Origin: Prolixibacteraceae bacterium
GTDB taxonomy: Bacteria; Bacteroidota; Bacteroidia; Bacteroidales; Prolixibacteraceae
Assembly: GCA_019459525.1 (NCBI GenBank)
Contig: JAIBEY010000036.1
Location: forward strand, 40,666 to 104,665
Length of the DNA: 64,000 nucleotides
Direction: 5' to 3'
The notes under the pieces were generated by a model. That model did no database searches. It had not been told where the DNA came from and saw only the letters and a program-made list of their open reading frames with translations. How positions within the stretch are numbered: position 1 is the first letter of the stretch; every line of letters starts with the position of its first letter. Shown here in pieces: positions 4,149 to 63,972 of this stretch. The translations under genes and the position numbers were made by a program.

Positions 4149-4215
4149 TGTGAGAATTATATAATTTCTTTAAAAAATTATGTAATACTTTTTTGTTCGA
4201 CACGCTATATCTTTT
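4149..4215 (+). promoter_or_regulatory. Tandem-TGTAA promoter block, site 1
   Basis: The 38-bp block at 4149-4186 starts TGTGAGAATTATATAA and ends TTATGTAAT. After 21 bp comes the -7-like box TATCTTTT at 4208-4215. It points to the radical SAM gene at 4376 and gives an untranslated leader of roughly 150 nt. Confidence 0.75.
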
Positions 4216-4233
4216 CAGCAAGATTAACTTCTT

Positions 4234-4336
4234 AATCCCCATATGGGGATTTTCTTCATTTACAGGCGCTTATCATGTTTGCAGTACAAGCCCCCTTCTG
4301 AAAGTTGGAGGTTAAGCTATACGAATGAAGGGCTTG
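4234..4336 (+). promoter_or_regulatory. Structured 5' leader of the radical SAM gene
   Basis: The leader downstream of promoter site 1 contains a perfect 18-bp palindrome, AATCCCCATATGGGGATT (4234-4251). It also contains a longer stem pairing CAAGCCC (4287-4293) with GGGCTTG (4330-4336), extended past a 2-base bulge. It could be an RNA fold or an operator. I do not recognise a known riboswitch. Confidence 0.45.
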
Positions 4337-4375
4337 ATTGGTAAGAAATGTTAGTAGCAACTAAAAACACTGAAT

Positions 4376-5866
4376 ATGAATATAGTATTAGTGTACCCGC
4401 AATACCCCGATTCATTCTGGAGTTTCAAACATGTCATGAAATTTATATCCAAGAAAGCAACGGTTCCACCCCTCGGATTAATAACTGTTTCGGCAATGCT
4501 CCCCAAAACATGGAAGAAAAAGCTGGTGGACATGAATGTTTCTGTACTTCAACCGGATGATTTACTGTGGGCTGATTATGTTTTTATCAGCGCCATGCAC
4601 ATCCAACAGCAATCGGTTGACCAGATTATTGACCTTTGCCTGAAATATGAAACGAAAATTATTGCAGGCGGGCCTCTTTTTACCCAGGAGTACGAAAACT
4701 ATCCACAAATTGATCATTTTATATTAAACGAGGCAGAAATAACATTGCCCTTGTTTCTGAACGATCTGGATGCCAACAAACAACCCGACAGGGTATATAA
4801 AACTAGTGAACATGCCGATATTACCTTGACTCCCCCACCCGATTTCCATCTATTATCGGCAAAGGATTATGTGACTATGAATATTCAGTTTTCGCGCGGA
4901 TGCCCTTTCTCCTGCGACTTTTGCGAAATCACTTCGCTCCTGGGTCACAAAGTGCGAATGAAAAATACCAGTCAGATTATTAACGAACTTGACTTGCTTT
5001 ACAACCTGAACTGGCGTGGCCCTATTCTTATCGTTGACGATAATTTTATCGGGAATAAAAACAAGGTCAAAAACAACTTGCTCCCGGCCATGAAAAAATG
5101 GATGCAGGCTCATAAACATCCGTTTACGTTTAACATCCAATCCTCTATCAACCTGGCGGATGACGAAGACTTAATGTCGCTGATGACTGCAACCGGATTT
5201 ACATCAACATTTGTAGGAATTGAAACCCCGGATGAAAAATCACTTCAGGAATGCAATAAAGGACAGAACAAAAACCGTGATTTACTGAATAGTGTGCAAA
5301 AAATACAAAATGCCGGATTGCAGGTTTCCGGCGGGTTTATAGTAGGTTTTGATGCCGATACTTCGTCTGTTTTCCAGAATCAAATCGATTTTATCCAGCA
5401 GAGCGGAATTGTTTCGGCCATGGTTGGTTTGCTAAATGCCCCCAAAAACACAACACTTTACAAGCGGCTAAAAGCTGAAAACCGGTTGACAACTGAATCT
5501 TCGGGAAACAACACCGATTCATCAATGAACTTTATTCCCGTCATGAACCGCCAGGAACTGCTGGATGGTTATCAGCAAATCATTCAGAATATTTATGCCA
5601 TAAAGCCTTATTATAAACGAATCCGCAAATTCCTGCTAAACTACCGGCAAATTCATACAGGACAAAAGAGAATGGAATTTTCGTACATCGCTAGTTTCTT
5701 CAAATCGGTTTTTGTGATCGGAATAATGAACAAAGGCAGGCGTGAGTATTGGAAATTACTGGCCTGGACACTTTTCAGACGACCGGCTTTATTAAAAGAT
5801 GCCTTAACGTTTACGGTATATGGCTATCACTTCAGGACGGTATATGGACTGAGAAATTCAAATTAA
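4376..5866 (+). CDS. B12-binding-domain radical SAM protein (DUF4070 type)
   Basis: This 496-residue protein starts with a Rossmann-like cobalamin-binding-type domain (residues 1-150, MNIVLVYPQYP and GPLFTQEYENYP). It is followed by a radical SAM core with the 4Fe-4S cysteines C176, C180 and C183 in CPFSCDFC. The C-terminal 130 residues match the extension seen in HpnP-like and DUF4070 enzymes. The cobalamin-ligating DxHxxG motif is not evident, so the domain may not bind B12. Family members carry out methylation or other radical chemistry on lipids and peptides. The substrate here is unknown. It is preceded by promoter site 1, and the ATG at 4376 is preferred over a nearby out-of-frame ATG at 4348. 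Confidence 0.85.
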   Translation: MNIVLVYPQYPDSFWSFKHVMKFISKKATVPPLGLITVSAMLPKTWKKKLVDMNVSVLQPDDLLWADYVFISAMHIQQQSVDQIIDLCLKYETKIIAGGPLFTQEYENYPQIDHFILNEAEITLPLFLNDLDANKQPDRVYKTSEHADITLTPPPDFHLLSAKDYVTMNIQFSRGCPFSCDFCEITSLLGHKVRMKNTSQIINELDLLYNLNWRGPILIVDDNFIGNKNKVKNNLLPAMKKWMQAHKHPFTFNIQSSINLADDEDLMSLMTATGFTSTFVGIETPDEKSLQECNKGQNKNRDLLNSVQKIQNAGLQVSGGFIVGFDADTSSVFQNQIDFIQQSGIVSAMVGLLNAPKNTTLYKRLKAENRLTTESSGNNTDSSMNFIPVMNRQELLDGYQQIIQNIYAIKPYYKRIRKFLLNYRQIHTGQKRMEFSYIASFFKSVFVIGIMNKGRREYWKLLAWTLFRRPALLKDALTFTVYGYHFRTVYGLRNSN

Positions 5867-5903
5867 GTTCTTTTAAGTATTTATTGTCGTATTTTTTCAG
5901 CTA

Positions 5904-5984: not shown

Positions 5985-6041
5985 GACAAAGAATGGACTG
6001 CGGTATTATTTCATAAAATCATTACAATAAAAGCAAACACC

Positions 6042-10093: not shown

Positions 10094-10160
10094 TGTGAGA
10101 ATTTTACAAATTTATTGTAAAATTTTGTAATCCTTTCCAACGTTAGATTCTTTAAATTTC
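10094..10160 (+). promoter_or_regulatory. Tandem-TGTAA promoter block, site 2
   Basis: The 38-bp block 10094-10131 opens TGTGAGAATTTTACAAA and ends TTTTGTAAT. Twenty-one bp later comes TAAATTTC at 10153-10160. The predicted transcription start is near 10167, which favours ATG 10183 over ATG 10171 for the downstream CsbD-like gene. Confidence 0.72.
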
Positions 10161-10375: not shown

Positions 10376-11719
10376 ATGCATGGTATGAAAGACAAACTTT
10401 CCGAAGAGGGAAAACAGGCCAAAAAATTTCCGCTGGGCTCAAAACCAGCAAACTTCTCCAACGAAACCGAAAATCATCAATTCGATGAAAAGTTTAAAGA
10501 ATCGGAGATGCGTTACCGCCGATTATTTGAAACGGCCCAGGATGGTATCCTGATACTCGATTTCGAAACCGGAAATATAGTCGATGCCAATCCATTTATA
10601 ATGAAGATCCTGGATTTTCCGTTATCCGGAATTATGGGCAAAAAATTATGGGAAATCGGTCTTTTTAGCAATAAGGAAGAATCGGAAGTTGCTTTTATCG
10701 AGCTCAAAACCAATGGCTACGTTCGTTTTGAGGACATGCCAATACAACGGAAAAACGGAAAAATTGCAGAAGTCGAATTCATTTGCAACGTCTATTTGGT
10801 AAACGACACGAAAGTCATTCAATGCAATATCCGCGATATTACCGACCGGAAAAGGGCCGAGAATGCATTGGTGGTCAGCGAACAAAACCTAAAGGAGCAA
10901 AACTCCAATTTCCGCGACCTGAATAAAGAATATGCGAATTTGAATGAAGAATTAACCGAGAGCATTGGCCAGATTCAGCACATGAACAATAACCTGATTA
11001 TCGCCAAATTAAAGGCTGAAGAATCAGATCACCTTAAATCGGCTTTCCTGGCCAACATGAGCCACGAGATTCGTACGCCCATGAATGCCATAATGGGTTT
11101 TTCTGAATTAATCCTCGGCCTCGAATTAGCTAACGAAAACCTGAACAAGTATGCCCGCATAATCAATACCAGTACCCAACAGCTTTTAACCATTATCAGC
11201 GACATTATTGATATTTCGAAAATTGAAGCCGGACAATTTACTGTTGATTCGGAATTAGTTAACGTAAGCGCATTACTTGCCGATATATTTGACACCTACA
11301 AAAGAGTATTCGACAGTAAAAAAATAAAATTGCATTTATCAACCGAACGCCCTGCAGATTCGGTACAGATACAAAGTGACGGGAACCGGATAAAACAGGT
11401 ATTTTGTAACCTGCTGAACAATGCCATAAAATTCACCCGCGAAGGTGAAATCGATTTTGGATACAAGATGAAAGATAACTTCATCGAGTTTTATGTGAAA
11501 GACAACGGCATTGGCATTACTCCTGAAGACCAGTCGCTTATTTTTGAACGTTTTATGCAGGTTAACGCAACCAATAAACAACTGAATAGCGGCAATGGCC
11601 TGGGATTGTCCATTTCAAAAGCGCTCGTCGAAAAACTTGGCGGTACCCTCAGTGTTTATTCCGAACCGGGTGTTGGTTCAACCTTTGCATTCACCATTCC
11701 CTACCCCAATGAAATCTGA
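10376..11719 (+). CDS. Cytosolic PAS sensor histidine kinase
   Basis: This 447-residue protein has no membrane segment. A PAS domain (residues 45-160, RRLFETAQDGILILDFETG) leads into a coiled coil (170-215), then a HisKA domain with phospho-acceptor histidine H229 in NMSHEIRTP. An HATPase domain follows with NLLNNAIKFT (N box), KDNGIGITPEDQ (G1) and GNGLGLSISKALVEKLGG (G2). There is no receiver domain, and no response regulator is encoded nearby, so its phosphotransfer partner is elsewhere or is the lone receiver at 38794. It follows the CsbD-like gene under promoter site 2. ATG 10385 is an alternative start. Confidence 0.9.
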   Translation: MHGMKDKLSEEGKQAKKFPLGSKPANFSNETENHQFDEKFKESEMRYRRLFETAQDGILILDFETGNIVDANPFIMKILDFPLSGIMGKKLWEIGLFSNKEESEVAFIELKTNGYVRFEDMPIQRKNGKIAEVEFICNVYLVNDTKVIQCNIRDITDRKRAENALVVSEQNLKEQNSNFRDLNKEYANLNEELTESIGQIQHMNNNLIIAKLKAEESDHLKSAFLANMSHEIRTPMNAIMGFSELILGLELANENLNKYARIINTSTQQLLTIISDIIDISKIEAGQFTVDSELVNVSALLADIFDTYKRVFDSKKIKLHLSTERPADSVQIQSDGNRIKQVFCNLLNNAIKFTREGEIDFGYKMKDNFIEFYVKDNGIGITPEDQSLIFERFMQVNATNKQLNSGNGLGLSISKALVEKLGGTLSVYSEPGVGSTFAFTIPYPNEI

Positions 11720-11798: not shown

Positions 11799-11865
11799 TG
11801 TGAGAATGATACAAATCTTTACCAAAATTATATAAGCCTCCTTCCCTATTAAGTACACAACTTTG
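11799..11865 (+). promoter_or_regulatory. Tandem-TGTAA promoter block, site 3 (araC-like gene)
   Basis: Block 11799-11836 opens TGTGAGAATGATACAAA and ends TTATATAAG. After 21 bp the box CAACTTTG lies at 11858-11865. It points into the small AraC regulator at 11958, so if that protein binds this motif it controls its own gene. Confidence 0.7.
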
Positions 11866-11957: not shown

Positions 11958-12518
11958 ATGAAGCTCTACATCAAAAATATGGTTTGCAATCGATGCAAAA
12001 CAACTGTACGAACAGAACTGGATAAAATCGGGATCGCATATAATACGATAAAGATAGGCGAAGTGAGTACCGAAGAAAAAGTTTCTCCGGAAAAGTTGGA
12101 ACAGTTTGCGGAAGCGTTGCAGAAAAGCGGATTTGAACTGATAGACACTAAGAATAACATGCTCATCGAAAAGCTAAAAAAGTCGGTTATCGATCTGGAA
12201 CATTATTCTGATGAAGATTTAAAAACAAGTTTTTCCGATTATATCCGTTTAATTGTTGACGATAACTTCATTTCGCTAAACAAGCTGTTTGAAGAAATCG
12301 AAGGCATCACGATCGAAAAATACATCAATAAACGAAAAATTGAACGCATAAAAGAAATATTGGTTTACGAAGACCTTGGACTCGCTGAAATTGCAAAGAA
12401 AATGCACTATACCAGCGTAATTGCTTTGTCGGCACAGTTTAAACGAATGACAGGATTAACACCTGCTTATTTCAGACAACTAAGGCAAAACAGAACATTA
12501 AATTCTACAATCAGTTGA
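11958..12518 (+). CDS. Small AraC-type regulator with HMA-like N-terminus, paralog 1
   Basis: This is a 186-residue protein. Residues 1-60 look like a heavy-metal-associated fold: MKLYIKNMVCNRCKTTV has the CxxC pair (C11, C14) at the expected loop. Residues about 85-180 hold the AraC/XylS double helix-turn-helix, with DLGLAEIAKKMHYTSVIALS as the first recognition region and FKRMTGLTPAYFRQLR as the family C-terminal motif. Of three paralogs in the window (also 18189 and 38211) only this one keeps both cysteines, so it may sense a metal or thiol signal (inference). Promoter site 3 lies upstream, and a histidine kinase gene follows 24 bases after the stop. Confidence 0.88.
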   Translation: MKLYIKNMVCNRCKTTVRTELDKIGIAYNTIKIGEVSTEEKVSPEKLEQFAEALQKSGFELIDTKNNMLIEKLKKSVIDLEHYSDEDLKTSFSDYIRLIVDDNFISLNKLFEEIEGITIEKYINKRKIERIKEILVYEDLGLAEIAKKMHYTSVIALSAQFKRMTGLTPAYFRQLRQNRTLNSTIS

Positions 12519-12541
12519 TTACCAAACAAAATACGATTAGC

Positions 12542-13720: not shown

Positions 13721-13787
13721 TGTGAGAATTGTGTAAATTTTCCTGAAAGTTATGTAACTCCTTTGTCCATGCAGGATTGTATATTTA
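13721..13787 (+). promoter_or_regulatory. Tandem-TGTAA promoter block, site 4 (dps)
   Basis: Block 13721-13758 opens TGTGAGAATTGTGTAAA and ends TTATGTAAC. After 21 bp TATATTTA lies at 13780-13787. The longest dps frame begins inside this -7 box, so the real start is the ATG at 13831. Confidence 0.78.
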
Positions 13788-13830
13788 TACAATTAATCGC
13801 TTGTACCACTTGCATATAATCCGGAATCGC

Positions 13831-17637: not shown

Positions 17638-18192
17638 ATGGACACTGAAGAACTGGATTTAACTGATGCCCGGGCACTTCGCCAAAAAGCCGAAGAACAA
17701 CTGAAGACGAAACAACAAGCTACTGAGCTACAGGTTTCAGGTGATGATGTAACCCGCTTATTGCACGAACTCCAGGTACACCAGATTGAGCTGGAAATGC
17801 AGAACGAAGAGTTGCGGCAGGCCTATGAAACCACGGAAGCGGCTTTGAAAAAATTTACCATGCTCTACGATTTGGCTCCAATGGGTTATTTTACACTAGA
17901 TCGGGATGGCTCCATCATTGAGTTAAATTTTACCGGCGCCGATATGCTTGGCGATAAACGGTTTAGTTTGGTAAACAGCAACTTTAAACTTTACATTTCC
18001 GAAGATTCACGACCGGTATTCAATAATTTTTTCAGAAAAATTTACGCCGGAAGTGCCAAAGAGTCGTGTGAGGTTACGCTAGGCTACAATACAAAAATTT
18101 TATGCCACGTGTATATGGAAGGCGTTATTGCCGACGATAACCAAAAGTGCCTGCTATCGGTAATTGATCTTTCGGGCATGAAAAAAATATGA
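17638..18192 (+). CDS. PAS-domain protein with coiled-coil N-terminus
   Basis: This 184-residue protein has a glutamine- and glutamate-rich coiled coil (residues 10-75, LLHELQVHQIELEMQNEELRQ) followed by one PAS domain (75-180, YDLAPMGYFTLDRDGSIIELN). There is no kinase, methyltransferase or DNA-binding domain. The HELQVHQIELEMQNEELR segment is a common linker of Bacteroidota and proteobacterial PAS kinases, so this looks like a kinase lacking its catalytic half, either a truncation or a stand-alone sensor. It starts 4 bases after the CheB-CheR stop, and its own stop overlaps the AraC paralog 2 start in ATGA. Confidence 0.85.
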   Translation: MDTEELDLTDARALRQKAEEQLKTKQQATELQVSGDDVTRLLHELQVHQIELEMQNEELRQAYETTEAALKKFTMLYDLAPMGYFTLDRDGSIIELNFTGADMLGDKRFSLVNSNFKLYISEDSRPVFNNFFRKIYAGSAKESCEVTLGYNTKILCHVYMEGVIADDNQKCLLSVIDLSGMKKI

Positions 18193-18749
18193 AGCTCCAC
18201 ATTAAAAATATGGTTAGCAACCGCTGCAAGATGATTGTGAAATCTGAACTGGAAAAGCTCGGACTTCATTTCATGGTGTTAGGTCTTGGCGAGGTGGAAA
18301 TAATGGAAACCCTGTCGGATGAAAGGCAAACCTTATTAAACGACCGACTGAACGAATGGGGGCTGTCGTTGATCAACGACAAAAAAAGTGTAATGATTGA
18401 AAAAATAAAAAACACCATTATTGAGCTGATCCATTATACCGATGAGCAAATAAAAATAAACTTCTCCGATTATTTGAGCCAGAAACTTAATTACGATTAC
18501 ACCTATTTATCCAACATTTTTAAAGAAAACCAGGGCACTACCATCGAACATTTTTTGCTCACACACCGGATTGAGAAGGCAAAAGAATTGTTGGTTTACG
18601 ACGAGCTTAATGTTACCGAAATAGCAGATAAACTGCATTTTAGCAATGTGGCCCACCTCTCGAACCAATTTAAAAAGATGACCGGATTAACACCATCCTA
18701 TTACAAGCACCTGAAGCTTAAACGGCGTAACCCGCTCGAAAATGTGTGA
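18189..18749 (+). CDS. Small AraC-type regulator, paralog 2
   Basis: This 186-residue paralog of the 11958 protein opens MKLHIKNMVSNRCK, where the first cysteine of the CxxC pair is replaced by serine, so metal binding is probably lost or altered. The AraC HTH is intact: ELNVTEIADKLHFSNVAHLS and FKKMTGLTPSYYKHLK. It overlaps the preceding PAS gene by 4 bases, an ATGA coupling that puts it under the same control as the CheB-CheR-PAS and PAS proteins. Its TGA stop lies inside promoter site 5, so the coding end and the next promoter share bases. Confidence 0.88.
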   Translation: MKLHIKNMVSNRCKMIVKSELEKLGLHFMVLGLGEVEIMETLSDERQTLLNDRLNEWGLSLINDKKSVMIEKIKNTIIELIHYTDEQIKINFSDYLSQKLNYDYTYLSNIFKENQGTTIEHFLLTHRIEKAKELLVYDELNVTEIADKLHFSNVAHLSNQFKKMTGLTPSYYKHLKLKRRNPLENV

Positions 18750-18808
18750 ATGATGTAACTCTTTCCGAAAGTTTTGTAACTGCATCCGAAACCGTGAATT
18801 TATCTTTA
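18743..18808 (+). promoter_or_regulatory. Tandem-TGTAA promoter block, site 5
   Basis: This is the cleanest copy. Block 18743-18780 opens TGTGTGAATGATGTAAC and ends TTTTGTAAC, followed after 20 bp by TATCTTTA (18801-18808). Its first bases encode the end of AraC paralog 2. It lies within the 5' part of the longest downstream frame and so places the real start of that gene at 18866. Confidence 0.8.
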
Positions 18809-18865: not shown

Positions 18866-19909
18866 ATGCAAAAAAATAAGCTTGAAAAACTCGCTACAGA
18901 GCGCAGTTATCCGTGTGTAACTATTTCTATGAACACCAACCGTACCTATCCTAAGAATCAGGAAGATATCAATCAACTGGAAAAACTCATGGAAGAAGCT
19001 CACGACCATGTAGTGAATGAATTTGGCCAGCACGAGGTAAAACTTTTGCTCGAAAAAATTGATACACTCGACGAGCAGATAGACGTTAACTATAACCTGG
19101 ACAGTCTTCATATTTTCCTTTCCAATACAACAACCGAAATCGTAAAATCACTGTGGCCAACATTAAAAGATACCGTTTCGGTAGCCGAAAATTTTGTTGT
19201 AAAACCTTTGATTAAAGACTTTAACCGGATGGAAGAATACCTTATTCTGGTGTTGTCCCAGTCGGATGTCAGGCTCCTGAAAGCGATTAACGACAGTATT
19301 TCCGGAGAAATTAAAGACGATGATTTTCCATTTAAATCGGGCGATGGAAAACAATCCGACAGCCAGGTTGGCGAATTCTTCAACCAAATCGACAAAGCGC
19401 TGGTGAGGTTATACAACAAAACCGACATGAATGTAGTGGTTGTTTGCACCGAAAAGAATTGGAGCCGGTTGATGCAGGTGGCCGACAAACCTTCTATTTA
19501 CTATGGTACGATCAGCATCAACCAAAACGGCACACCCAATACTACACTGGCTTCAGAAGCATGGAAAATAGTAGAAGCCATTCAGGAAGAAAGCAGAACT
19601 CAGGCTATTCGCGAAATGCTGGATGCCAAAGGAGAAGGTAAAGTCCTTACCGATTTACTCGAAATTTATGTGGCAGTTAGCGCTGGTCGTGGCGATTTAT
19701 TAATTACACACGATGATTACCACCAGGCAGTGAAAATGAACGGACAATATTCCTTTTATTCGGTTGATGATCTTACCCAACCCGGTGTTATTGACGACAT
19801 TACCAGCGACTTGGCCTGGGATGTGATTTCGAAAAAAGGCCGTGCCATATTTACCCATTCCGAAGAATTTAAACCGTTGGGGAATATCGCGCTGAAGCTG
19901 AGGTACTAA
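18866..19909 (+). CDS. baeRF family 3-like release-factor-related protein
   Basis: This 347-residue protein starts MQKNKLEKLATERSYPCVTI. The PCVTISMNTNRTYP opening, LHIFLSNTTTEIV, then the VVVVCTEKNWSRL and DLLITHDDYHQA segments match the bacterial archaeo-eukaryotic release factor families, most like family 3. These proteins resemble eRF1/Pelota domains and are proposed to act in ribosome rescue or stress. I use ATG 18866: 40 upstream in-frame codons from 18746 overlap promoter site 5. A strong hairpin follows the stop, and the ATPase gene starts 84 bases later. Confidence 0.82.
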   Translation: MQKNKLEKLATERSYPCVTISMNTNRTYPKNQEDINQLEKLMEEAHDHVVNEFGQHEVKLLLEKIDTLDEQIDVNYNLDSLHIFLSNTTTEIVKSLWPTLKDTVSVAENFVVKPLIKDFNRMEEYLILVLSQSDVRLLKAINDSISGEIKDDDFPFKSGDGKQSDSQVGEFFNQIDKALVRLYNKTDMNVVVVCTEKNWSRLMQVADKPSIYYGTISINQNGTPNTTLASEAWKIVEAIQEESRTQAIREMLDAKGEGKVLTDLLEIYVAVSAGRGDLLITHDDYHQAVKMNGQYSFYSVDDLTQPGVIDDITSDLAWDVISKKGRAIFTHSEEFKPLGNIALKLRY

Positions 19910-22668: not shown

Positions 22669-22734
22669 TCTGTGAATAATGTAACTTATTCTCAGAATAG
22701 TATAACAAGTTAAAGGGCCGTATCCCTACCTTTA
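22669..22734 (+). promoter_or_regulatory. Tandem-TGTAA promoter block, site 6
   Basis: Block 22669-22706 opens TCTGTGAATAATGTAAC and ends AGTATAAC, followed after 20 bp by TACCTTTA (22727-22734). It leads to the small exported protein at 22764 with a leader of about 20 nt. Confidence 0.75.
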
Positions 22735-26357: not shown

Positions 26358-26424
26358 TGTGTGAATGATGTAACTCTTATCATCAATTGTATAACACTTC
26401 CTGATTGGATTTTAAGCTTCTTTG
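26358..26424 (+). promoter_or_regulatory. Tandem-TGTAA promoter block, site 7
   Basis: Block 26358-26395 opens TGTGTGAATGATGTAAC and ends TTGTATAAC. After 21 bp comes CTTCTTTG (26417-26424). It drives the DUF3108 gene at 26460. Confidence 0.75.
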
Positions 26425-27264: not shown

Positions 27265-27331
27265 TGTGTGAAACATGTAATTTTTCGTAAAAATTTTGTA
27301 ATACAAACAACAACAGCACTTTATAATTTAG
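27265..27331 (+). promoter_or_regulatory. Tandem-TGTAA promoter block, site 8
   Basis: Block 27265-27302 opens TGTGTGAAACATGTAAT and ends TTTTGTAAT, followed after 21 bp by TAATTTAG (27324-27331). Transcription would start near 27338 and read the folded leader before the M48 gene. Confidence 0.75.
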
Positions 27332-27370: not shown

Positions 27371-27461
27371 ATGAAACGAGCCATGAGTAAAACTTTCTCA
27401 TACACGATGATTCCTGGTTGGCGAGTTCCATATGGCAATTAAAAAAACAAATTATACACAG
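27371..27461 (+). promoter_or_regulatory. Folded 5' leader element, family copy 2
   Basis: It starts GAAACGAGCCATGAG and ends GAGTTCCATATGGCAATTAA with an A-rich stretch before the start codon. GCCA near the 5' end can pair with TGGC near the 3' end, with an inner CATGAG stem. It matches the 48459 copy closely. The ATG inside CCATATGGCAATT is part of the element, not the start of the gene. Confidence 0.6.
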
Positions 27462-30297: not shown

Positions 30298-30393
30298 AAT
30301 GAGCCAAATATGCCATTAGTTAACTTCAAAACCGTTACAGAATTCCAGAAATATCTTACAACATTCGCACAATCCAATCATTCGTTTTGATAA

Positions 30394-30460
30394 TGTGTGA
30401 ATCATGCAACTCTTTCCTAAAGTTTTATAACACTTTCCGCGGCAAACCCGTTTAAATTAG
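30394..30460 (+). promoter_or_regulatory. Tandem-TGTAA promoter block, site 9
   Basis: Block 30394-30431 opens TGTGTGAATCATGCAAC and ends TTTTATAAC. After 21 bp comes TAAATTAG (30453-30460). It leads through a folded leader to the acidic protein, universal stress protein and aldolase genes. Confidence 0.76.
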
Positions 30461-31505: not shown

Positions 31506-31507
31506 CC

Positions 31508-34761: not shown

Positions 34762-34828
34762 AGTGTGAATCTTGCAAGACTAATCAATAATTATACAACA
34801 CTTGCTCCGGTAATAGCCCTCACCTTTG
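34762..34828 (+). promoter_or_regulatory. Tandem-TGTAA promoter block, site 10
   Basis: Block 34762-34799 opens AGTGTGAATCTTGCAAG and ends TTATACAAC. After 21 bp comes CACCTTTG (34821-34828). It drives the CHRD lipoprotein gene. Confidence 0.68.
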
Positions 34829-35820: not shown

Positions 35821-35887
35821 TGTGGGAATGATGTAATTTTTCCTTAAAATTCTGTAACCCAATTGTGGCTGAAGTTACCCAACTTAG
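35821..35887 (+). promoter_or_regulatory. Tandem-TGTAA promoter block, site 11
   Basis: Block 35821-35858 opens TGTGGGAATGATGTAAT and ends TTCTGTAAC, followed after 21 bp by CAACTTAG (35880-35887). The hydrolase gene starts 219 bases later, so the leader is long. Confidence 0.74.
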
Positions 35888-38210: not shown

Positions 38211-38771
38211 ATGAAGCTTCACATTAAATTTGATATTAACACGGCATGTAAAAAAATAGTAATGGAGCAATTGGAGAAAGAACAATTAACATACTCTTCG
38301 TTAAGCTTTGGTGAAGTTGAGCTGAACGAAACGATTTCTGGCGACCAGCTAAAAACCCTGGCTGCAAACTTGGGCAATTATGGCATTGAAATAATTGAAT
38401 CGCCGAAAAGTATCCTTGTTCAAAAAATAAAGGACACCATTATAGAAATGATTTACATGGACGAAAAATTACCGACCATAAAAATCTCAGACTATCTATC
38501 CGAAAAACTGAATTATAGCTACGGCTATCTTTCGAACCTGTTTGTAGAAGCGACTTATACCTCCATTGAAAATTTCATCATATTCCAAAAAATCAACAAG
38601 GCAAAAGAACTTATAACTACGAATGAATTTACGATTACCGAAATAGCATATCGGTTAAATTACAGCAGTACCGCTCATCTCTGCAACCAATTTAAAAATG
38701 AAACAGGAATTACCCCAACTACGTTTCAACGAATTATTAATAAACGACGAAATCCGGAAGAAGTAGAATAA
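38211..38771 (+). CDS. Small AraC-type regulator, paralog 3
   Basis: This 186-residue paralog has the N-terminus MKLHIKFDINTACKKIV: only one cysteine remains and the MVxxxC metal loop is gone. The HTH region is intact (EFTITEIAYRLNYSSTAHLC, FKNETGITPTTFQRII). It is followed 22 bases later by a lone receiver gene and then a CHASE3 kinase gene, a neighbourhood that ties the AraC family to two-component signalling. No tandem-TGTAA block lies immediately upstream. Confidence 0.88.
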   Translation: MKLHIKFDINTACKKIVMEQLEKEQLTYSSLSFGEVELNETISGDQLKTLAANLGNYGIEIIESPKSILVQKIKDTIIEMIYMDEKLPTIKISDYLSEKLNYSYGYLSNLFVEATYTSIENFIIFQKINKAKELITTNEFTITEIAYRLNYSSTAHLCNQFKNETGITPTTFQRIINKRRNPEEVE

Positions 38772-38793
38772 AACAACTAGAAAAAAAACCATT

Positions 38794-39240: not shown

Positions 39241-39257
39241 TTCAAAAACATCGGCTT

Positions 39258-41127: not shown

Positions 41128-41194
41128 TATGGGAATTGTATAACTGTTTCGGATAATGATGTAATGCTTTAGGATAACACCCGGTATAACTTTG
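41128..41194 (+). promoter_or_regulatory. Tandem-TGTAA promoter block, site 12
   Basis: Block 41128-41165 opens TATGGGAATTGTATAAC and ends GATGTAAT, followed after 21 bp by a perfect TAACTTTG (41187-41194). It drives the lmo0937-type and YtxH genes. Confidence 0.76.
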
Positions 41195-41262: not shown

Positions 41263-41418
41263 ATGAACAGTATTCTTTATATCGTAGCAGTCATTTTAGT
41301 CATTTTTTGGGCTATCGGATTCTTTGCCTACAGTGTGGGAGCAATTATTCATATTCTGCTGGTTCTAGCTATTATATCAATTCTATTAAGAATTATTCGG
41401 GGAAATAGTAACGTTTAA
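41263..41418 (+). CDS. lmo0937-family small membrane protein
   Basis: A 51-residue protein reads MNSILYIVAVILVIFWAIGF, then FAYSVGAIIHILLVLAIISI, then LLRIIRGNSNV. Two hydrophobic helices are separated by an AYSxGxIIH motif, the pattern of lmo0937 (DUF5670) proteins. These are stress-induced in other bacteria and of unknown mechanism. The start at 41263 is used; a nearby out-of-frame reading (41226-41408) is a shadow. A YtxH gene follows 18 bases after the stop. Confidence 0.85.
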   Translation: MNSILYIVAVILVIFWAIGFFAYSVGAIIHILLVLAIISILLRIIRGNSNV

Positions 41419-41807: not shown

Positions 41808-41874
41808 AGTGTGAATTATGTAATTTTTCAAGAAAGTTATATAACATGTATCCAAATACTTAATATTACCTTAG
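41808..41874 (+). promoter_or_regulatory. Tandem-TGTAA promoter block, site 13
   Basis: Block 41808-41845 opens AGTGTGAATTATGTAAT and ends TTATATAAC, followed after 21 bp by TACCTTAG (41867-41874). It lies just before the alpha/beta hydrolase gene at 41900. Confidence 0.77.
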
Positions 41875-55409: not shown

Positions 55410-55476
55410 CCTGTAAATCATGTAACTCTTTGCTGAAATTGTGTAACAGTTTCCGGAAGTTAAAAGACCATTTTGG
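55410..55476 (+). promoter_or_regulatory. Tandem-TGTAA promoter block, site 14 (orphaned)
   Basis: Block 55410-55447 opens CCTGTAAATCATGTAAC and ends TTGTGTAAC, followed after 21 bp by CATTTTGG (55469-55476). Only a short truncated frame follows (55508), so its original target gene appears decayed. Confidence 0.65.
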
Positions 55477-55507
55477 GCTGTAATACAAAACCCAACAATC
55501 AACGTCA

Positions 55508-55564
55508 ATGGAAAACATTTTAGCGTATGTATTAACTGTATTTACGGCATTTTTGCCGCCATGA
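55508..55564 (+). pseudogene. Truncated small membrane protein (YqaE/Pmp3-like start)
   Basis: ATG 55508 reads MENILAYVLTVFTAFLPP and then stops. Hydrophobic helix plus FLPP resembles the start of YqaE/Pmp3 proteins, whose second helix should follow. None does. It lies at the expected distance from promoter site 14, so it is probably what remains of a stress-induced gene. Assignment is tentative. Confidence 0.45.
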
Positions 55565-55625
55565 ACCCCATTCCAGAGAATTGTTATAGCTATGATTTGT
55601 TGTAAATGCCAACTTTTTTCACCTG

Positions 55626-55784
55626 CTAATATTGATATCTTGCCTGACTTTCATCAACAGCAATCACATTGTCAGGTTTTGGGAAGCTAAGAATATTGCG
55701 ATCGTCGAAAAAATCAGGTGTATCATCCTGGGCATATTCGGTGTCAAGTATGTTGGTCGGAGGAATCAAACTGGCTCTTAATGC
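55626..55784 (-). pseudogene. Gene fragment on the minus strand, unrecognised family
   Basis: An open 52-codon stretch without a start codon ends at a TAG (55626-55628). It reads LRASLIPPTNILDTEYAQ and continues DDTPDFFDDRNILSFPKP, then DNVIAVDESQARYQY. The amino-acid make-up is that of a real protein C-terminus (acidic, aromatic, few rare residues) and is cut upstream by stops. I do not recognise the family. It lies between promoter sites 14 and 15 in the opposite direction. Confidence 0.5.
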
Positions 55785-55807
55785 TTAATATAAACTTCAT
55801 AAGTAAG

Positions 55808-55875
55808 CCGATGAATCATGCAATTCTTTAACTAAATTGTGTGAAGTTTTTCAGAAACAATTGACACCATCATTG
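55808..55875 (+). promoter_or_regulatory. Tandem-TGTAA promoter block, site 15 (weak)
   Basis: Block 55808-55845 opens CCGATGAATCATGCAAT and ends TTGTGTGAA. The -7 region (CATCATTG, 55868-55875) is a poor match. It points into the L,D-transpeptidase gene. Confidence 0.5.
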
Positions 55876-55895
55876 TTGTTAATAATACCTATACT

Positions 55896-57182
55896 ATGCA
55901 TCCAATGAATAATATCCGAAAAATACTAACTGCACTTATCCTTAGCTGTTTGGTGGCAACCAGTTGGACCCAGCAACCAGTTGTAAAGACCAATACAGAG
56001 CTTAAGTCAGACTCTTTGGTACAGAAATTTTACGCTATCTACCCCGAACCGCTGTATTGGCTCTCGTCGCGCAAAGACACCAAAAGGGCAACCGAATGGC
56101 TCACTGCCATCGAAATTGCAAAAGATTCAGGCCTGGTTTCGAAGAAACTGATGACCGGAAAGATACGCACAGCAATGCTTGCAAAAAATATCCGGAACAA
56201 AGTTTTAAAAGCCAATACCGATAAGCAGATTACCAGCGTGGTTTTAAACTTCATTAAAGAATTACAGGAAATTAACGTTCACTTTGATTACGATGAAGTT
56301 AAAGCCCCACCGCGCGATTCCGCATTGATTTACCAGTTGATGAATTCGAAAGACAAAGCCGTTTCGCAAGTCGTTTCGGAGCTTGATTGTCAAGATCGGG
56401 ATTATCAGGTCCTGAAAAAATTCCTGAAAGATTCCATCCCGGACAAGAATTCACTGAAATACAAATCGGTTGTTCTTTCGATGAACTATTTGAAATACCT
56501 GGCAGCGAATCGTCAGTCGGAATACATTGTTGCAAATATTCCTGAAACAGAAGTCAGGTACTACCGTGATAACCAGGTGGCGTTGAAAATGAAATCGGTG
56601 GTTGGCAAAAAGAAAAATCCAACGCCAACTATCGCATCACACATTACAAGTATTGTCACCTTTCCGGCCTGGAACGTTCCCTATTCCATCGCGTCTAAGG
56701 AACTGTTGCCCAAAATACAAAAAGACGAGAGTTATCTCGAACGAAATAATTTTGAAGTAGTTGATGCCAAAGGAAACGTCGTTGACGATTCGGAATTGGA
56801 TTGGGCTAGCTATACGGAAAAAAACTTTCCTTATTTTTTCCGGGAGTCAACCGGGCCAAACAATTCGCTGGGAGTTTTAAAGTTTAACCTGGGAAATCCA
56901 TTCAGCATCTATTTACACGACACCAACTCGAAAGGTGGTTTTGCGAAAGAATCGCGGTTTTTGAGTCACGGCTGTGTGAGACTCGAGAAACCCATTGAAC
57001 TGGCAGTGGCACTGACTGATGGGAAAATTGATCCCAAAAAATTAAAAAATGGTCAAAAAGACACCGAAACCAAAATCATAAAGCTAAATAAAAGGGTGCC
57101 GGTTTTCATTGTATATATGCCGGTAGTGGTTAGCGGTCAAAAAGTAACTTTCCTGAAAGACGTGTACGGGCTAGTTCAGTAA
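55896..57182 (+). CDS. L,D-transpeptidase (YkuD/YcbB type)
   Basis: This 428-residue exported protein has a signal peptide (ILTALILSCLVATSWTQ) and a helical region (residues 30-230) like the scaffold of YcbB-type transpeptidases. The YkuD catalytic domain has HDTNSKGGFAKESRFLSHGC and VRLEKP, with the nucleophile cysteine near residue 360. It forms 3-3 crosslinks in peptidoglycan, a cell-wall change linked to stress resistance. Promoter site 15 lies upstream. It is followed by an inverted repeat and a convergent second transpeptidase-type gene. Confidence 0.9.
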   Translation: MHPMNNIRKILTALILSCLVATSWTQQPVVKTNTELKSDSLVQKFYAIYPEPLYWLSSRKDTKRATEWLTAIEIAKDSGLVSKKLMTGKIRTAMLAKNIRNKVLKANTDKQITSVVLNFIKELQEINVHFDYDEVKAPPRDSALIYQLMNSKDKAVSQVVSELDCQDRDYQVLKKFLKDSIPDKNSLKYKSVVLSMNYLKYLAANRQSEYIVANIPETEVRYYRDNQVALKMKSVVGKKKNPTPTIASHITSIVTFPAWNVPYSIASKELLPKIQKDESYLERNNFEVVDAKGNVVDDSELDWASYTEKNFPYFFRESTGPNNSLGVLKFNLGNPFSIYLHDTNSKGGFAKESRFLSHGCVRLEKPIELAVALTDGKIDPKKLKNGQKDTETKIIKLNKRVPVFIVYMPVVVSGQKVTFLKDVYGLVQ

Positions 57183-59577: not shown

Positions 59578-61425
59578 TCACCGATAAACAACCGGTCCCG
59601 GCTTACCGATCTCAAAGTCACGAAACCCAAAATCGGCTGTGCCAAATGAATTTATTTTGAATATGTTACGACCGCTATCGGGAATAACCGGATAAAATGA
59701 AAGCGAGATCTGAAAAGAATTTAAAATCAGGTTTTCGTTTTTGATTAAAACCCCCACCCCAATCTGCGAGTACACTTTACTTTTCCTGAATCCGGTTACT
59801 GCATCGCTAAGCATACCCATCGTGAAACTAAAATAGGGACCAAAACGGAACCCGATGAAATTCCAGGGAGCATAAGCCTGTGTTTGTATGGTCAATAGCA
59901 GTCGGCTTGTTCCTTGCAGGGCCGTTGTGTGAAATCCATCCAACCCATAATCCTCATTGAGCGTTAGGCTATCGGAATAAAAACGGTTAAAACCAATGGT
60001 TACCTCTGGCTTTACAAATTGCCTGAATTTCCACTTTCCCATTTCGATTAAGCCGGTAAAATAATTCGCCCCTGCCGTAAAAACACCCTCTTCAACATGT
60101 GACGCTCGAATAAAGGTTCCGTATTCGAAATTGGAACTCAGGTAGCCCCACGGATAATAACTTCCCATTGAAACGCGTGCTCCCAAATAAGCACGACCCG
60201 TGTGGTTTTTCTCCTGATAACCGCCGGTTACGCTGAAAACCATACCGACAGGCACATCTTCAGGAATACCAAACTTGAATATGTATCTTTCCTGAACATA
60301 CCTTCGGGTCGAAATTCCGAAGCTTGACAGGTAAAAATTCTCATTGGTAAACCGGTGTTGGGTGTCAAATAATTCGCTGGGTTTTTCCAGGTAACGAACC
60401 CGCAAAAATCGCGCGGTTGATATAAAATTGGTGGTTCGGTTGTATTCGCTGTTGCCACCAAAAAGCCGGATGGCATTACCCGCCCAATAATCCTGGGAAT
60501 TAAATTTATACCGCAGCATTCCGAGTTTATGGGTATCGAAATGCGCCGAATCGTTAAAAAACTGTTGGGTAAAATTTACACCAGCAGCCCATTTGGCAAA
60601 AGGCGAAAAGAATGGCCGATCGATGGTAAAACTCCGGTTGTAATTTTTATCGCCTTCTTTTCCCAAATGTACCGTCCCCCTGACGTAACTGTTCCGGATG
60701 TTTGGGATTGAATAATTGGTGTGGTATGCATTGATGCCTTCCGCATAGTTTCGCGTAAAATCACCCTGTAACTCATGTCCCAGACCCAGAAAATTCTTGT
60801 CAGCTAAATTAATCGTAGTGCTTGATGCAGATGTCGAACCTTTAGGAATGATGCTCCAGATATCAAGTTCGCGGATAAAAATATCAACCGAATCGGATCC
60901 TTTCGCGACAGATTTGACGAAAAACGAAACATCGCGGATATATTTCTGGCTTCGCACCAACCGCTCCGACTCTTTCACCAGCAACGAATCAAAGACCTGG
61001 TTTTGGCGGATGAGCAGTAAATTGCGGATGGTTATCCGCTGAGATTTGACGTGTAACTTATTTCCTGTTTTTGCCAGAAAGTTCGGCGACTTATAAATGC
61101 TATCGCCGATGGAATATCCAAACGGGTCGAGCGTTTCGATGTTAATATTCCTGATAATTTTTCCTTCGAAGGCACTATAGGGCTTTTGAATCAGCTTTTT
61201 ATAGACTTTTTTTTTGCTGTTCCTTTGGTGAGAAGTTGGCACAACTGGCTTGAAGATAAGCGAGTACATCAGTTTGGTAAACTTACCTCGTTTCGAAAAA
61301 GATTCAATATCAGAATAAATTTTAGTTGAGTCTTTGGGTGCAGGTTTTTGCTGGGCAAATGCAAAACCACTTGTCAAGACTGACACAAAAAACAGTATGA
61401 GAATAGTTTTGAATCGCATTTGCAT
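59578..61425 (-). CDS. BamA/TamA-like outer-membrane barrel protein
   Basis: This 615-residue protein has a signal peptide (ILILFFVSVLTSGFAFA), a POTRA-like N-terminal region (residues 85-190, KIIRNINIETLDPFGYSIGD and LLIRQNQVFDSLLVKESERL) and a long beta-strand-rich C-terminus (about 230-615). The end is VVYR, not a typical aromatic terminus, so barrel assembly may differ. It lies between yihY and the mlaD gene on the same strand, so it could be the outer-membrane end of the Mla lipid path (inference), as Bacteroidota lack MlaA-type partners in many loci. Confidence 0.75.
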   Translation of the reverse strand: MQMRFKTILILFFVSVLTSGFAFAQQKPAPKDSTKIYSDIESFSKRGKFTKLMYSLIFKPVVPTSHQRNSKKKVYKKLIQKPYSAFEGKIIRNINIETLDPFGYSIGDSIYKSPNFLAKTGNKLHVKSQRITIRNLLLIRQNQVFDSLLVKESERLVRSQKYIRDVSFFVKSVAKGSDSVDIFIRELDIWSIIPKGSTSASSTTINLADKNFLGLGHELQGDFTRNYAEGINAYHTNYSIPNIRNSYVRGTVHLGKEGDKNYNRSFTIDRPFFSPFAKWAAGVNFTQQFFNDSAHFDTHKLGMLRYKFNSQDYWAGNAIRLFGGNSEYNRTTNFISTARFLRVRYLEKPSELFDTQHRFTNENFYLSSFGISTRRYVQERYIFKFGIPEDVPVGMVFSVTGGYQEKNHTGRAYLGARVSMGSYYPWGYLSSNFEYGTFIRASHVEEGVFTAGANYFTGLIEMGKWKFRQFVKPEVTIGFNRFYSDSLTLNEDYGLDGFHTTALQGTSRLLLTIQTQAYAPWNFIGFRFGPYFSFTMGMLSDAVTGFRKSKVYSQIGVGVLIKNENLILNSFQISLSFYPVIPDSGRNIFKINSFGTADFGFRDFEIGKPGPVVYR

Positions 61426-62216: not shown

Positions 62217-62234
62217 GATGCTGTTATTTTATAG

Positions 62235-63017
62235 TTACTTAAAAAATGATTTGATTAAAGGGTCCGCCGATTTTTCGAAATCGTCGATGGTCCCTTCAGT
62301 ATAAACTTCCCCGTCTTTCAGCATGATTATACGATCGGCCGTAGCCCGCGCACATTCAATATCGTGGGTAATGATGATGGACGATGTTTTGTATTTTTTC
62401 TGAACCTCATTGATCAATTCGCTGATTTCGTCAGAAGTTACCGGATCGAGGCCTGTCGTAGGTTCGTCGTACAGCATAATCATGGGATCAACCACAATGG
62501 TTCGCGCCAGGCTAATCCGCTTCCGCATTCCGCCTGAAAGCTGCGATGGCATTTTATTTAAAGCATCAGCCAAGCCCACATTTTCCAGTGCTTCAATAAC
62601 TTTTTCTGAGATTTCTTTTTCTGAAAGGCCCTTCTTAATTCGCCGCAAGGGGAATTCAAGATTTTCCTTCACCGTCATCGAATCGTATAACGCACCACTC
62701 TGAAAAAGGAATCCGAGTTTCTGCCTTAACAAACCCAAAGCATCCGTATTTAAAGTGCTTAAATTTTCGCCGAGTACATTGATTGTTCCAGCATCCGGAT
62801 TCATTAACCGCACGATACATTTAATAAGCACCGATTTTCCGGAGCCTGATTTGCCCAGCACCACCAGGTTTTCGCCGTTATATAATTTCAATGAAACATC
62901 TTTCAGCACCTCCTGAGTGCCAAACGATTTTTTCAGGTTATTGATTTCAATAACCGAATCTGTGCTTTTCGCTACTGACGAAGTTTTTGTAGTTTTTTCT
63001 GTTTGAAGGGTGTTCAT
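62235..63017 (-). CDS. mlaF: ABC transporter ATPase of the Mla lipid system
   Basis: This 260-residue ATPase has Walker A GKSGSGKSVLI, the signature LSGGMRKRISLARTIV, Walker B MIMLYDEPTTGLDPV and the H-loop IITHDIECARAT. The LSGGMRKR form is typical of MlaF/Mkl ATPases paired with MCE proteins. It overlaps the mlaE gene by 4 bases (ATGA type), so permease and ATPase are translationally coupled. Confidence 0.95.
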   Translation of the reverse strand: MNTLQTEKTTKTSSVAKSTDSVIEINNLKKSFGTQEVLKDVSLKLYNGENLVVLGKSGSGKSVLIKCIVRLMNPDAGTINVLGENLSTLNTDALGLLRQKLGFLFQSGALYDSMTVKENLEFPLRRIKKGLSEKEISEKVIEALENVGLADALNKMPSQLSGGMRKRISLARTIVVDPMIMLYDEPTTGLDPVTSDEISELINEVQKKYKTSSIIITHDIECARATADRIIMLKDGEVYTEGTIDDFEKSADPLIKSFFK

Positions 63018-63877
63018 GATATTATCATATCAGTAATTTGAACTGCAATCATATCAACAATAATTACCAGAAGCGAAGCCAGCACCACCGCCGAATTGGC
63101 TGCAATACCCACGCTTTCGGTTCCGCGACCGGCATTGTATCCTTTGTATGTTCCTACCATGCCGATTACTGCACCAAAAAAGAATGTTTTTACAACCGCA
63201 GGTAAAAAGTCAATAAAGTCGATGGAACTAAAAGCTTGTGAGAAAAATAACGTAAAGGTCACTTCGCCTTTAATATTTGCGCCGCCCCAACTTCCAAGTA
63301 TGCCCAGCAAGTCGGCGTACAGTACCAGCAGCGGGATCATTATCGTAGCAGCCAGAACCCTAGTGACCACTAAAAACCGCATCGGATTGGTTGACGAAAC
63401 TTCCATGGCTTCAATCTGTTCGGTTACTTTCATCGAACCCAACTCTGCTCCCATTCCTGAACCAATTTTTCCGGCGCAGATTAATGCGGTGATAACCGGC
63501 CCCATTTCCCTGATCAGCGAAACGGCAACCATTCCGGGAAGCATGGAAACGGCACCAAAATCTACAAGTACGGGCCTGGATTGTATCGTAAGCACCAAAC
63601 CCATTATAGCACCGGTAATTGAAATAAGCGGTAAGGTTTTGTATCCGATTTGATAACACTGGTGCAGAAATTCCTTCCATTCAAAGTGACCTGAAAACAT
63701 TTCTTTGGTAAGGCGCGCCATAAACAGGAATACATCGGCCACATCTATTAAAAAGCGGCTGAAAATATCGGTTTGTTCCAGTGTTTTTTCACTAACCTTC
63801 GTCATCGAATGCGCTGTAGCATCGCGAAGTTTTGGAATTACTTTTATGACTTTTGTTACAGGACTAAATTTTCCCAT
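63014..63877 (-). CDS. mlaE: MlaE-family ABC permease
   Basis: This 287-residue permease has about five helices and the MlaE signature LTIQSRPVLVDFGAVSMLPG, then REMGPVITALICAGKIGSGM and GAELGSMKVTEQIEAMEVSS. With MlaF and the MCE protein it moves phospholipids between the inner and outer membranes and keeps the outer membrane asymmetric. It is first in the minus-strand mlaE-mlaF-mlaD operon and is preceded by promoter site 16. Confidence 0.95.
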   Translation of the reverse strand: MGKFSPVTKVIKVIPKLRDATAHSMTKVSEKTLEQTDIFSRFLIDVADVFLFMARLTKEMFSGHFEWKEFLHQCYQIGYKTLPLISITGAIMGLVLTIQSRPVLVDFGAVSMLPGMVAVSLIREMGPVITALICAGKIGSGMGAELGSMKVTEQIEAMEVSSTNPMRFLVVTRVLAATIMIPLLVLYADLLGILGSWGGANIKGEVTFTLFFSQAFSSIDFIDFLPAVVKTFFFGAVIGMVGTYKGYNAGRGTESVGIAANSAVVLASLLVIIVDMIAVQITDMIIS

Positions 63878-63905
63878 CTCTAGTTTGCTTAACTTGTTGT
63901 TATCA

Positions 63906-63972
63906 CAAAGCTATGCTGATTAGCCTGCTATTGTGTTACATAACTTTTGAAATAAGTTACATAATTCACACA
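63906..63972 (-). promoter_or_regulatory. Tandem-TGTAA promoter block, site 16 (mla operon)
   Basis: Read on the minus strand, the block opens TGTGTGAATTATGTAAC at 63972 and ends TTATGTAAC at 63935. After 21 bp comes a perfect TAGCTTTG (63913-63906). It is the only minus-strand copy and points into mlaE. Confidence 0.82.

What the first reader, a model, noticed from the sequence alone, without database searches (positions are those of the whole stretch)
4149..63972. One promoter architecture repeated 16 times: tandem TGTAA half-sites fixed 20-21 bp before a -7 box
I aligned 16 blocks by hand, starting at 4149, 10094, 11799, 13721, 18743, 22669, 26358, 27265, 30394, 34762, 35821, 41128, 41808, 55410, 55808 and (minus strand) 63972. 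Each is 38 bp with TGTGNGAATNATGTAAY and, 21 bp on, AARTTNTGTAAY. In 13 the -7-like box (TAnnTTTG type) begins exactly 21 bp after the block; in two (18743, 22669) 20 bp; one (55808) is weak. All lie upstream of and point into the next gene. Genes served include csbD-like, araC-like, dps, baeRF, M48, usp/aldolase, lmo0937/ytxH, L,D-transpeptidase and mla. I do not recognise this motif as a described Bacteroidota regulon. The strict spacing argues for one activator.
Basis: seen in the sequence. Interest (0 to 1): 0.95.

Follow-up and report, generated by a model that had tools for sequence, protein, structure and literature searches.

The report
AraC-type regulon packed in one island
A closely similar 38-letter DNA block sits in front of stress and cell-envelope genes along one stretch of a Bacteroidota genome and recurs in relatives mostly alongside one small AraC-type protein family, so this protein likely switches the whole gene set on together.

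Summary
All 16 blocks lie where stated: 15 score 30-53 bits, one (55808) is weak, and a 17th was missed (30371, minus strand). Reversed and permuted matrices score nothing. Genome-wide, 24 credible sites exist; 23 lie on the window's contig or near the start of one other contig. The two TGTAA half-sites are 21 bp apart in 221 of 225 pairs, and the -7 box mostly follows at 21 or 20 bp.

The likely activator is a 186-residue protein family with a metallochaperone-like N-terminal fold and an AraC DNA-binding domain. Four copies exist in this genome, all on this contig, two directly behind a site. In 140 family genomes, site number tracks the best match to this protein (Spearman 0.80). Among 106 such genes in many Bacteroidota, 34 have a site upstream (24 of them 86-100 bp before the start codon) and 22 at the stop codon. 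The layout matches AraC-type activation.

Targets include CsbD, ice-binding-like, DUF5670, YtxH, OmpA, Mla and signalling proteins.

Not shown: binding, activation, signal, stress induction. One genome (G030) has seven sites but no detectable regulator; some strong regulators lack sites. Nine literature searches found no description.

The parts
4149..4186 (+). site, before radical SAM/B12-binding gene 4376-5866
   Evidence: (39.1 bits)
10094..10131 (+). site, before 64-aa ORF 10171 and PAS histidine kinase 10376-11719
   Evidence: (34.1)
11799..11836 (+). site, before AraC-like gene 11958-12518
   Evidence: (38.1)
13721..13758 (+). site, before ferritin-like/Dps gene 13777-14370
   Evidence: (45.2)
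18743..18780 (+). site overlapping the stop codon of AraC-like gene 18189-18749, before baeRF gene
   Evidence: (52.9)
22669..22706 (+). site, before 105-aa gene 22764-23081
   Evidence: (41.6)
26358..26395 (+). site, before DUF3108 gene 26460-27254
   Evidence: (43.8)
27265..27302 (+). site, before M48 peptidase gene 27432-28262
   Evidence: (40.5)
30334..30371 (-). site not in the finding, before 28687-30297 (536 aa, no Pfam match), back to back with the next site
   Evidence: (39.8)
30394..30431 (+). site, before 30631-30963, Usp 31020-31505 and class I aldolase 31409-32560
   Evidence: (49.1)
34762..34799 (+). site, before 34888-35694
   Evidence: (31.3)
35821..35858 (+). site, before alpha/beta hydrolase 36107-37216
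   Evidence: (47.1)
41128..41165 (+). site, before DUF5670 (lmo0937-type) ORF 41263-41418 and YtxH-like 41437-41709
   Evidence: (29.7)
41808..41845 (+). site, before alpha/beta hydrolase 41900-42751
   Evidence: (42.0)
55410..55447 (+). site, no ORF over 49 aa starting within 400 bp; next large gene is 55896-57182
   Evidence: (41.5)
55808..55845 (+). weak site before L,D-transpeptidase 55896-57182; no -7 box in register
   Evidence: (12.3)
63935..63972 (-). site, before mla operon (MlaE 63014-63877 minus, ABC ATPase, MlaD)
   Evidence: (50.6)
11958..12518 (+). candidate activator paralog, CxxC intact (MVCNRCK), site 159 bp upstream
18189..18749 (+). candidate activator paralog, MVSNRCK, site at its stop codon; the AlphaFold model is of this one
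38211..38771 (+). candidate activator paralog, divergent (long branch), no site directly upstream or at its stop
18866..19909 (+). target: baeRF family 3 protein
41263..41418 (+). target: DUF5670 small membrane protein
63014..63877 (-). target: MlaE permease

Best explanation
The 38-bp blocks form one promoter architecture (two TGTAA-type half-sites 21 bp apart, then in most cases a -7 box 20-21 bp on) and likely are the operators of an AraC-type activator, the 186-residue protein encoded four times on this contig, which would switch on a co-located stress and envelope regulon. Shown: the block, its direction, its spacing, its phylogenetic link to this protein family and its recurrent place before or at the end of the regulator's own gene. 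Inferred: each half-site takes the two helix-turn-helix motifs of one monomer; two monomers sit as a direct repeat on one face of the helix; taking the -7 box as -12 to -5, the block covers about -71 to -34, so the proximal monomer meets sigma at the -33 region, as in class II AraC activation. Inferred too: the -7 box often departs from TA at its first base, which would keep these promoters weak without the activator. Sites before the regulator's own gene predict positive autoregulation. The signal is unknown; the N-terminal metallochaperone-like domain, which in two of the four own copies (18189 and C113:33031) has Ser for the first Cys of CxxC, and the neighbouring PAS, kinase and receiver genes are candidate inputs.
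For: Site reality: own genome 26 pattern hits at up to 2 mismatches (reversed-pattern control 1), of which 24 look real and 23 of those 24 are on C113:32938-104635 or C105:1701-7968. Spacing: 306 first-half hits above 14 bits were examined for second halves above 9 bits at spacings 11-53; 221 of the 225 pairs found are at exactly 21. Among direct shifts of the site profile 21 is the best (column-permutation p 0.022); the best inverted match is not significant (p 0.097). -7 box: of 184 sites, 139 have a 5-of-6 match to TAnnTTTG among offsets 14-29, 109 at offset 21 and 26 at 20. Regulator: the 4 full-length copies found in the genome are all on C113. 140 family genomes, own included: 839 sites in 86 genomes, Spearman 0.80 with best regulator E-value; at E<=1e-69, 61 of 66 genomes have 2 or more sites against 6 of 74 otherwise. 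Phylum sample without the own genome: 3 or more sites in 8 of 17 genomes with a regulator below E 1e-77 (cut chosen after seeing the table) against 4 of 278. Own-gene sites: of 106 regulator genes 34 have a site above 15 bits upstream, 24 of these 86-100 bp from the start codon, and 22 have it at the stop codon, 21 in one register; of 12 deliberately weak relatives 0 have it upstream and 3 at the stop. Structure: AlphaFold model pLDDT 90, residues 1-63 beta-alpha-beta-beta-alpha-beta, then two HTH motifs; matches AraC, MarA, SoxS and YesN DNA-binding domains and GolB, Atx1, HAH1 and CopZ-type chaperones.
Against: No binding, expression or start-site data. G030 (100% complete) has 7 sites at 1 mismatch, most with a -7-like box by eye, but no full-length regulator even at E 1e-3; G049 (70% complete) has 3 sites and none. 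Of the 17 strong phylum-sample genomes 5 have no site: G172 of the window's class and G290, G350, G405, G413 outside it. Of 17 neighbourhoods fetched around such regulators 7 hold any hit above 15 bits, 1 of them upstream of the regulator and 2 at its stop codon. 59 of 117 tree rows carry no site at either place by the 15-bit cut. Genome-level co-occurrence would also arise for any gene that always travels with the island, and the counts are not corrected for shared descent. The 80 named loci were chosen for encoding the regulator.
Confidence: 0.82

Rival explanations
1. The sites belong to one activator, but of another family (another AraC protein, or a response regulator such as a LytTR or NarL type), and the AraC-like genes studied here are merely frequent targets.
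For: G030 has 7 sites and no such AraC protein; response regulators are among recurrent targets, 6 of 148; PAS, kinase or receiver genes sit beside each of the four AraC-like genes (the one at C113:33636 by eye).
Against: Among 50 window ORFs scanned with Pfam the only DNA-binding proteins found are AraC-like ones and one MerR (42969-43259); site number tracks the match strength to this family, and weak relatives mostly lack sites; 21-bp direct repeats against -33 are the AraC layout (recalled).
Confidence: 0.12
2. The block and the -7 box together are the promoter of an alternative (ECF) sigma factor, TGTAAC being its -35 element.
For: The proximal TGTAAC would lie at about -39 to -34 (from the register) and resembles some ECF -35 elements (recalled).
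Against: A second conserved TGTAAC lies 21 bp further upstream, which a sigma factor would not need; the -7 box is close to the sigma-A type TAnnTTTG described for flavobacteria (PMC9723704, passages seen); the 20-21 bp gap is longer than ECF spacers (recalled).
Confidence: 0.03
3. The blocks are a mobile repeat family (MITE-like) that happens to lie between genes.
For: Clustered in one stretch; fixed length.
Against: Conservation is confined to motif columns, with free columns between; 165 of 174 sites face the next gene; the -7 register extends beyond the block.
Confidence: 0.01

Closest known systems
E. coli AraC at araI1-araI2 (araBAD promoter)
   Same: AraC-type DNA-binding domain; two proximal operators bound together to recruit RNA polymerase (PMC4760080, passages seen); direct repeats with 21-bp period and contact with the -35 region (recalled).
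   Different: No Pfam match to an arabinose-type sensor domain; N-terminal part predicted as a ferredoxin-like (metallochaperone-like) fold; many predicted targets; Bacteroidota -33/-7 promoter.
MarA/SoxS/Rob regulons
   Same: Small AraC-family activators serving many stress promoters (recalled); SoxS and MarA structures match the model's C-terminal half.
   Different: MarA/SoxS bind one marbox as a monomer (recalled); here two tandem half-sites at fixed spacing, and sites mostly in one stretch.
Metallochaperone-like AraC relative in a copper cluster
   Same: Same two-domain protein family; the Mucilaginibacter robiniae plasmid copy lies among copper P-type ATPase and multicopper oxidase genes.
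   Different: That copy has MVCDRCI (intact CxxC) and no site above 9 bits in its 24.6-kb neighbourhood; it is 47% identical to the own copy at C113:33031.
SigB / RpoS general stress regulons
   Same: Overlapping target kinds (CsbD, Dps, Usp, YtxH; overlap recalled).
   Different: Here an activator with sigma-A-like -7 boxes is predicted, not an alternative sigma factor; stress induction untested.

Membership tests
AraC/XylS family (regulator) | C-terminal HTH_18 / two helix-turn-helix DNA-binding domain | tested here: met
   PF12833 E 2.3e-19 for 18189-18749; PDB profile and fold matches to AraC, MarA, SoxS
AraC-type class II activation (promoter) | tandem direct-repeat half-sites, 21-bp period | tested here: met
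   221 of 225 pairs at 21 bp; best direct self-match of the profile at shift 21, permutation p 0.022
AraC-type class II activation (promoter) | proximal half-site abuts the -33/-35 element at fixed distance | tested here: met
   -7 box at offset 21 or 20 in 135 of the 139 sites that have a 5-of-6 box, of 184; 45 have no such box in offsets 14-29
AraC-type class II activation (promoter) | regulator binds the site and activates | not testable with these tools
   needs binding and expression data
HMA (heavy-metal-associated) domain | beta-alpha-beta-beta-alpha-beta ferredoxin-like fold | tested here: met
HMA (heavy-metal-associated) domain | Pfam HMA match (PF00403, accession recalled) | tested here: not met
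   only HTH families matched for 11958, 18189, 38211 and C113:33031
HMA (heavy-metal-associated) domain | metal-binding CxxC | tested here: not met
   not in 3 of 4 own copies: MVSNRCK in 18189 and C113:33031, DINTACK in 38211; intact MVCNRCK in 11958
ECF sigma promoter | -35/-10 pair without a further upstream conserved element, about 16-17 bp spacer (recalled) | tested here: not met
   conserved distal half-site and 20-21 bp gap
general stress regulon | induction by several stresses | not testable with these tools
   no expression data

The most novel reading that the evidence does not exclude
A Bacteroidota-wide general stress and envelope-protection regulon, run without an alternative sigma factor by a metallochaperone-fold AraC activator that controls itself and is inherited, lost and possibly moved as one self-contained island with nearly all its targets.
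Probability: 0.45. Interest if true: 0.87.

Novelty: new variant of a known kind. Interest (0 to 1): 0.75.

Why it matters
I found no account of how Bacteroidota coordinate CsbD, Dps, Usp, YtxH and envelope genes (nine searches, listed below). This gives a candidate regulator, an operator readable at nucleotide level, a predicted start site and testable target lists in the 67 of 140 family genomes that hold two or more sites and in other orders. It also shows a regulon that is physically packed: all four regulator copies and 19 of 24 sites on one contig, 4 more near the start of another. A relative with intact CxxC lies in a copper cluster without a site, which offers a test of how a metal-sensor-like protein might have been turned into a stress regulator.

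Tried and rejected
Searches used patterns with a wrong gap and found nothing; the gap was corrected on the window. In one search three minus-strand sites entered the matrix on the wrong strand; one search corrected this, and only results from then on are used. Sigma-factor and mobile-repeat readings were rejected on spacing, register and direction. An inverted repeat inside the block (AACTnTTT..AAAgTT) was considered; in one metric for both, the best direct self-match (shift 21) exceeds column permutations (p 0.022) and the best inverted one does not (p 0.097) (the first attempt was not comparable between the two). Whether the N-terminal fold is HMA or ACT cannot be settled by fold alone; the CxxC in relatives favours HMA. 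The F. psychrophilum promoter paper (PMC9723704) was seen only as the 12 passages; it describes sigma motifs, and 'arac' has 0 occurrences in the listing; its supplements were not available. PMC4760080 was seen as 12 passages. For all other papers I saw only the listings. Searches for a description of this motif, regulon or protein: (nine; one search returned no paper), in an open-access library that lacks most subscription papers; one search was about araI1-araI2.
Full report
The blocks are real. All 16 are at the stated places and in the stated register; a -7-like box starts at offset 21 in 13 and 20 in two, with 5 or 6 of 6 letters in 12 of these 15 and 4 of 6 in three. A 38-column matrix built from 24 own-genome sites carries 38.7 bits; in the window it scores 15 of the 16 blocks at 29.7-52.9 bits, 55808 at 12.3, and adds one block on the minus strand at 30371; the reversed and 10 column-permuted matrices give nothing above 8 bits. 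Sixteen of the 24 sites are from the window, so the independent test is elsewhere: 80 named loci, nearly all titled as Bacteroidota, 1.31 Mb, give 184 hits above 20 bits in 64 loci, and the reversed and five permuted matrices give none. Those loci were chosen because they encode a relative of the AraC-like protein.

The sites behave as promoters. 5 of 182 lie wholly inside an ORF of 150 aa or more, against 66% of random positions. The next gene is on the same strand for 165 of 174 sites (10 of 184 had no next gene in the locus), against 1762 of 3461 random positions and 33 of 177 flipped sites; its start is within 400 bp for 147 of 174 against 652 of 3461 (genes by a simple longest-ORF rule). 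The two half-sites are 21 bp apart in 221 of 225 pairs found over spacings 11-53; 306 first halves were examined. A -7 box with at least 5 of 6 matches is found in offsets 14-29 for 139 of 184 sites, 109 at offset 21 and 26 at 20. Its first base is C in 48% and T in 22%.

The regulon is packed. In the 5.54-Mb genome the pattern with up to 2 mismatches has 26 hits, reversed control 1. Two 2-mismatch hits (C14, C104) look like chance. Of the other 24, 19 are on C113 between 32938 and 104635, 4 on C105 between 1701 and 7968, and 1 on C66. C113 ends with the window and the C105 sites are near that contig's start, so the two may adjoin; this was not tested. In 126,634 bases held from elsewhere in the genome the matrix has one hit above 9 bits, the C66 site.

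The regulator. Four full-length copies of one 186-aa protein family were found in the genome, all on C113. Two have a site directly upstream (C113:33031 at 95 bp before its start codon; window 11958 at 159 bp), one has it over its stop codon (window 18189), and the divergent one (38211) has neither. The predicted structure (62 sequences, pLDDT 90) has a beta-alpha-beta-beta-alpha-beta domain at residues 1-63 and two helix-turn-helix motifs. The C-terminal half matches AraC, MarA, SoxS and YesN; the N-terminal half matches GolB, Atx1, HAH1 and CopZ, though an ACT domain matches almost as well.

Co-occurrence. In 140 genomes of the family, own included, 86 have at least one site at 1 mismatch, 839 in all (sum). 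Site number correlates with the best regulator match (Spearman 0.80, genomes without a match entered at the 1e-25 limit). With a match at E<=1e-69, 61 of 66 genomes have 2 or more sites; otherwise 6 of 74. Genomes with the closest regulators (E<=1e-88, 26 genomes) have a median of 21.5 sites. In an even sample of the phylum (295 without the own genome) sites are rarer and single hits approach the control (117 sites against 21 control matches), but 3 or more sites occur in 8 of 17 genomes with a regulator below E 1e-77 and in 4 of 278 others; that cut was chosen after seeing the table. These counts do not correct for shared descent.

Own-gene sites. Among 106 regulator genes in named, family and own loci, 34 have a site above 15 bits upstream, 24 of them 86-100 bp before the start codon; 22 have it at the stop codon, 21 in one register (the stop triplet is letters 5-7 of the block) and one starting 1 bp after; none has both. 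Of 12 weak relatives fetched on purpose 0 have it upstream and 3 at the stop. On the tree (117 rows) the upstream type is concentrated in one clade of 52 rows, of which 31 carry it and 21 do not by this cut; the clade has members labelled Bacteroidales, Marinilabiliales, Flavobacteriales, Cytophagales, Saprospirales, Chitinophagales and Sphingobacteriales; many branches are weakly supported. Some distant lineages show variant sites, for example three in L195 with CTTTG-type -7 boxes and one over the stop codon in L200, but 10 of 17 such neighbourhoods have no hit above 15 bits.

Exceptions. G030 has seven 1-mismatch sites on seven contigs, most with a -7-like box by eye, two of them before genes that look like PAS or coiled-coil sensors by eye, but no full-length regulator at E 1e-3. 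G049 has three sites and no regulator but is 70% complete. G107 has the regulator and no 1-mismatch site, but a 2-mismatch site over the regulator's stop codon. Of the 17 strong phylum genomes, five have no site.

Targets. Of 148 first ORFs behind sites in the named loci, Pfam finds HTH_18 in 26 (inflated by the choice of loci), ice-binding-like in 13, CsbD in 12, response regulators in 6, Cupin_2 in 6, radical SAM and B12-binding in 4 each, MlaE in 3, DUF5670 in 3, and BON, YceI, OmpA, YtxH, DUF1003 and CopC in 2 each; 75 families match in all and the first 25 are shown. Behind sites of the own genome lie ferritin-like/Dps, Usp, M48, baeRF, DUF5670, YtxH-like, mla, L,D-transpeptidase (weak site), CsbD, ice-binding-like, OmpA and patatin genes. 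This is a stress and envelope profile by annotation only.

Mechanism. With the -7 box at -12 to -5 (as given for flavobacteria in PMC9723704, passages), the block covers about -71 to -34 and the proximal TGTAAC -39 to -34. That is about the place of araI1-I2 in the araBAD promoter (positions recalled; PMC4760080 passages state joint binding of araI1 and araI2 and recruitment of RNA polymerase). I therefore propose class II activation by two monomers on a direct repeat. Binding, activation, autoregulation and signal are inferred.

A clue to the signal. Relatives with intact CxxC exist; one on a Mucilaginibacter robiniae plasmid lies in a copper-resistance cluster and has no site above 9 bits within 24.6 kb. 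In the upstream-site rows of the tree 31 of 33 lack the first Cys, while 14 of 25 stop-site rows keep it. A named, annotated carrier is the Runella rosea HYN0085 plasmid, where two sites (28.9 and 18.0 bits) precede an ice-binding family gene divergent from the regulator.

Novelty. Nine searches of the open-access library found no account of the motif, the regulon or the protein. AraC-type activation is a known kind; the domain make-up, the widely shared operator and the packing of regulator and targets make it a new variant.

Noticed in passing
window 55410-55896: A strong site (41.5 bits) with a 4-of-6 -7 box has no ORF over 49 aa starting within 400 bp and is followed by a weak second site before the L,D-transpeptidase; a small RNA or long leader is possible.
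   Followed up: no
window 11958-13444, 17638-18749, 38211-41039; C113:33031-36470 (L053): Each of the four AraC-like paralogs lies beside PAS, histidine kinase or receiver genes (the last one by eye), suggesting a linked sensory input.
   Followed up: partly
L204 (Mucilaginibacter robiniae plasmid): An intact-CxxC relative of the regulator sits in a copper-resistance cluster and has no site nearby, so it may be a copper sensor.
   Followed up: partly
named loci, A2 targets; C105:3582-5738 (L056): Ice-binding-like (PF11999) proteins are the commonest non-regulator target family, 13 of 148, also on a plasmid of Runella rosea (L203).
   Followed up: partly
C113:20684-24713 (L053): By eye, Fur-like, catalase-peroxidase, ferritin-like and peroxiredoxin genes lie just outside the site-bearing stretch without sites; not scanned by Pfam.
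   Followed up: no
window 28687-30297 (minus) and 59578-61425 (minus): Two long proteins (536 and 615 aa) without Pfam match; the first has its own site, the second follows the mla genes.
   Followed up: no
window 4376-5866: A B12-binding radical SAM protein with DUF4070 is a target here, and radical SAM/B12 families recur in 4 of 148 targets elsewhere; its link to stress is unclear.
   Followed up: no
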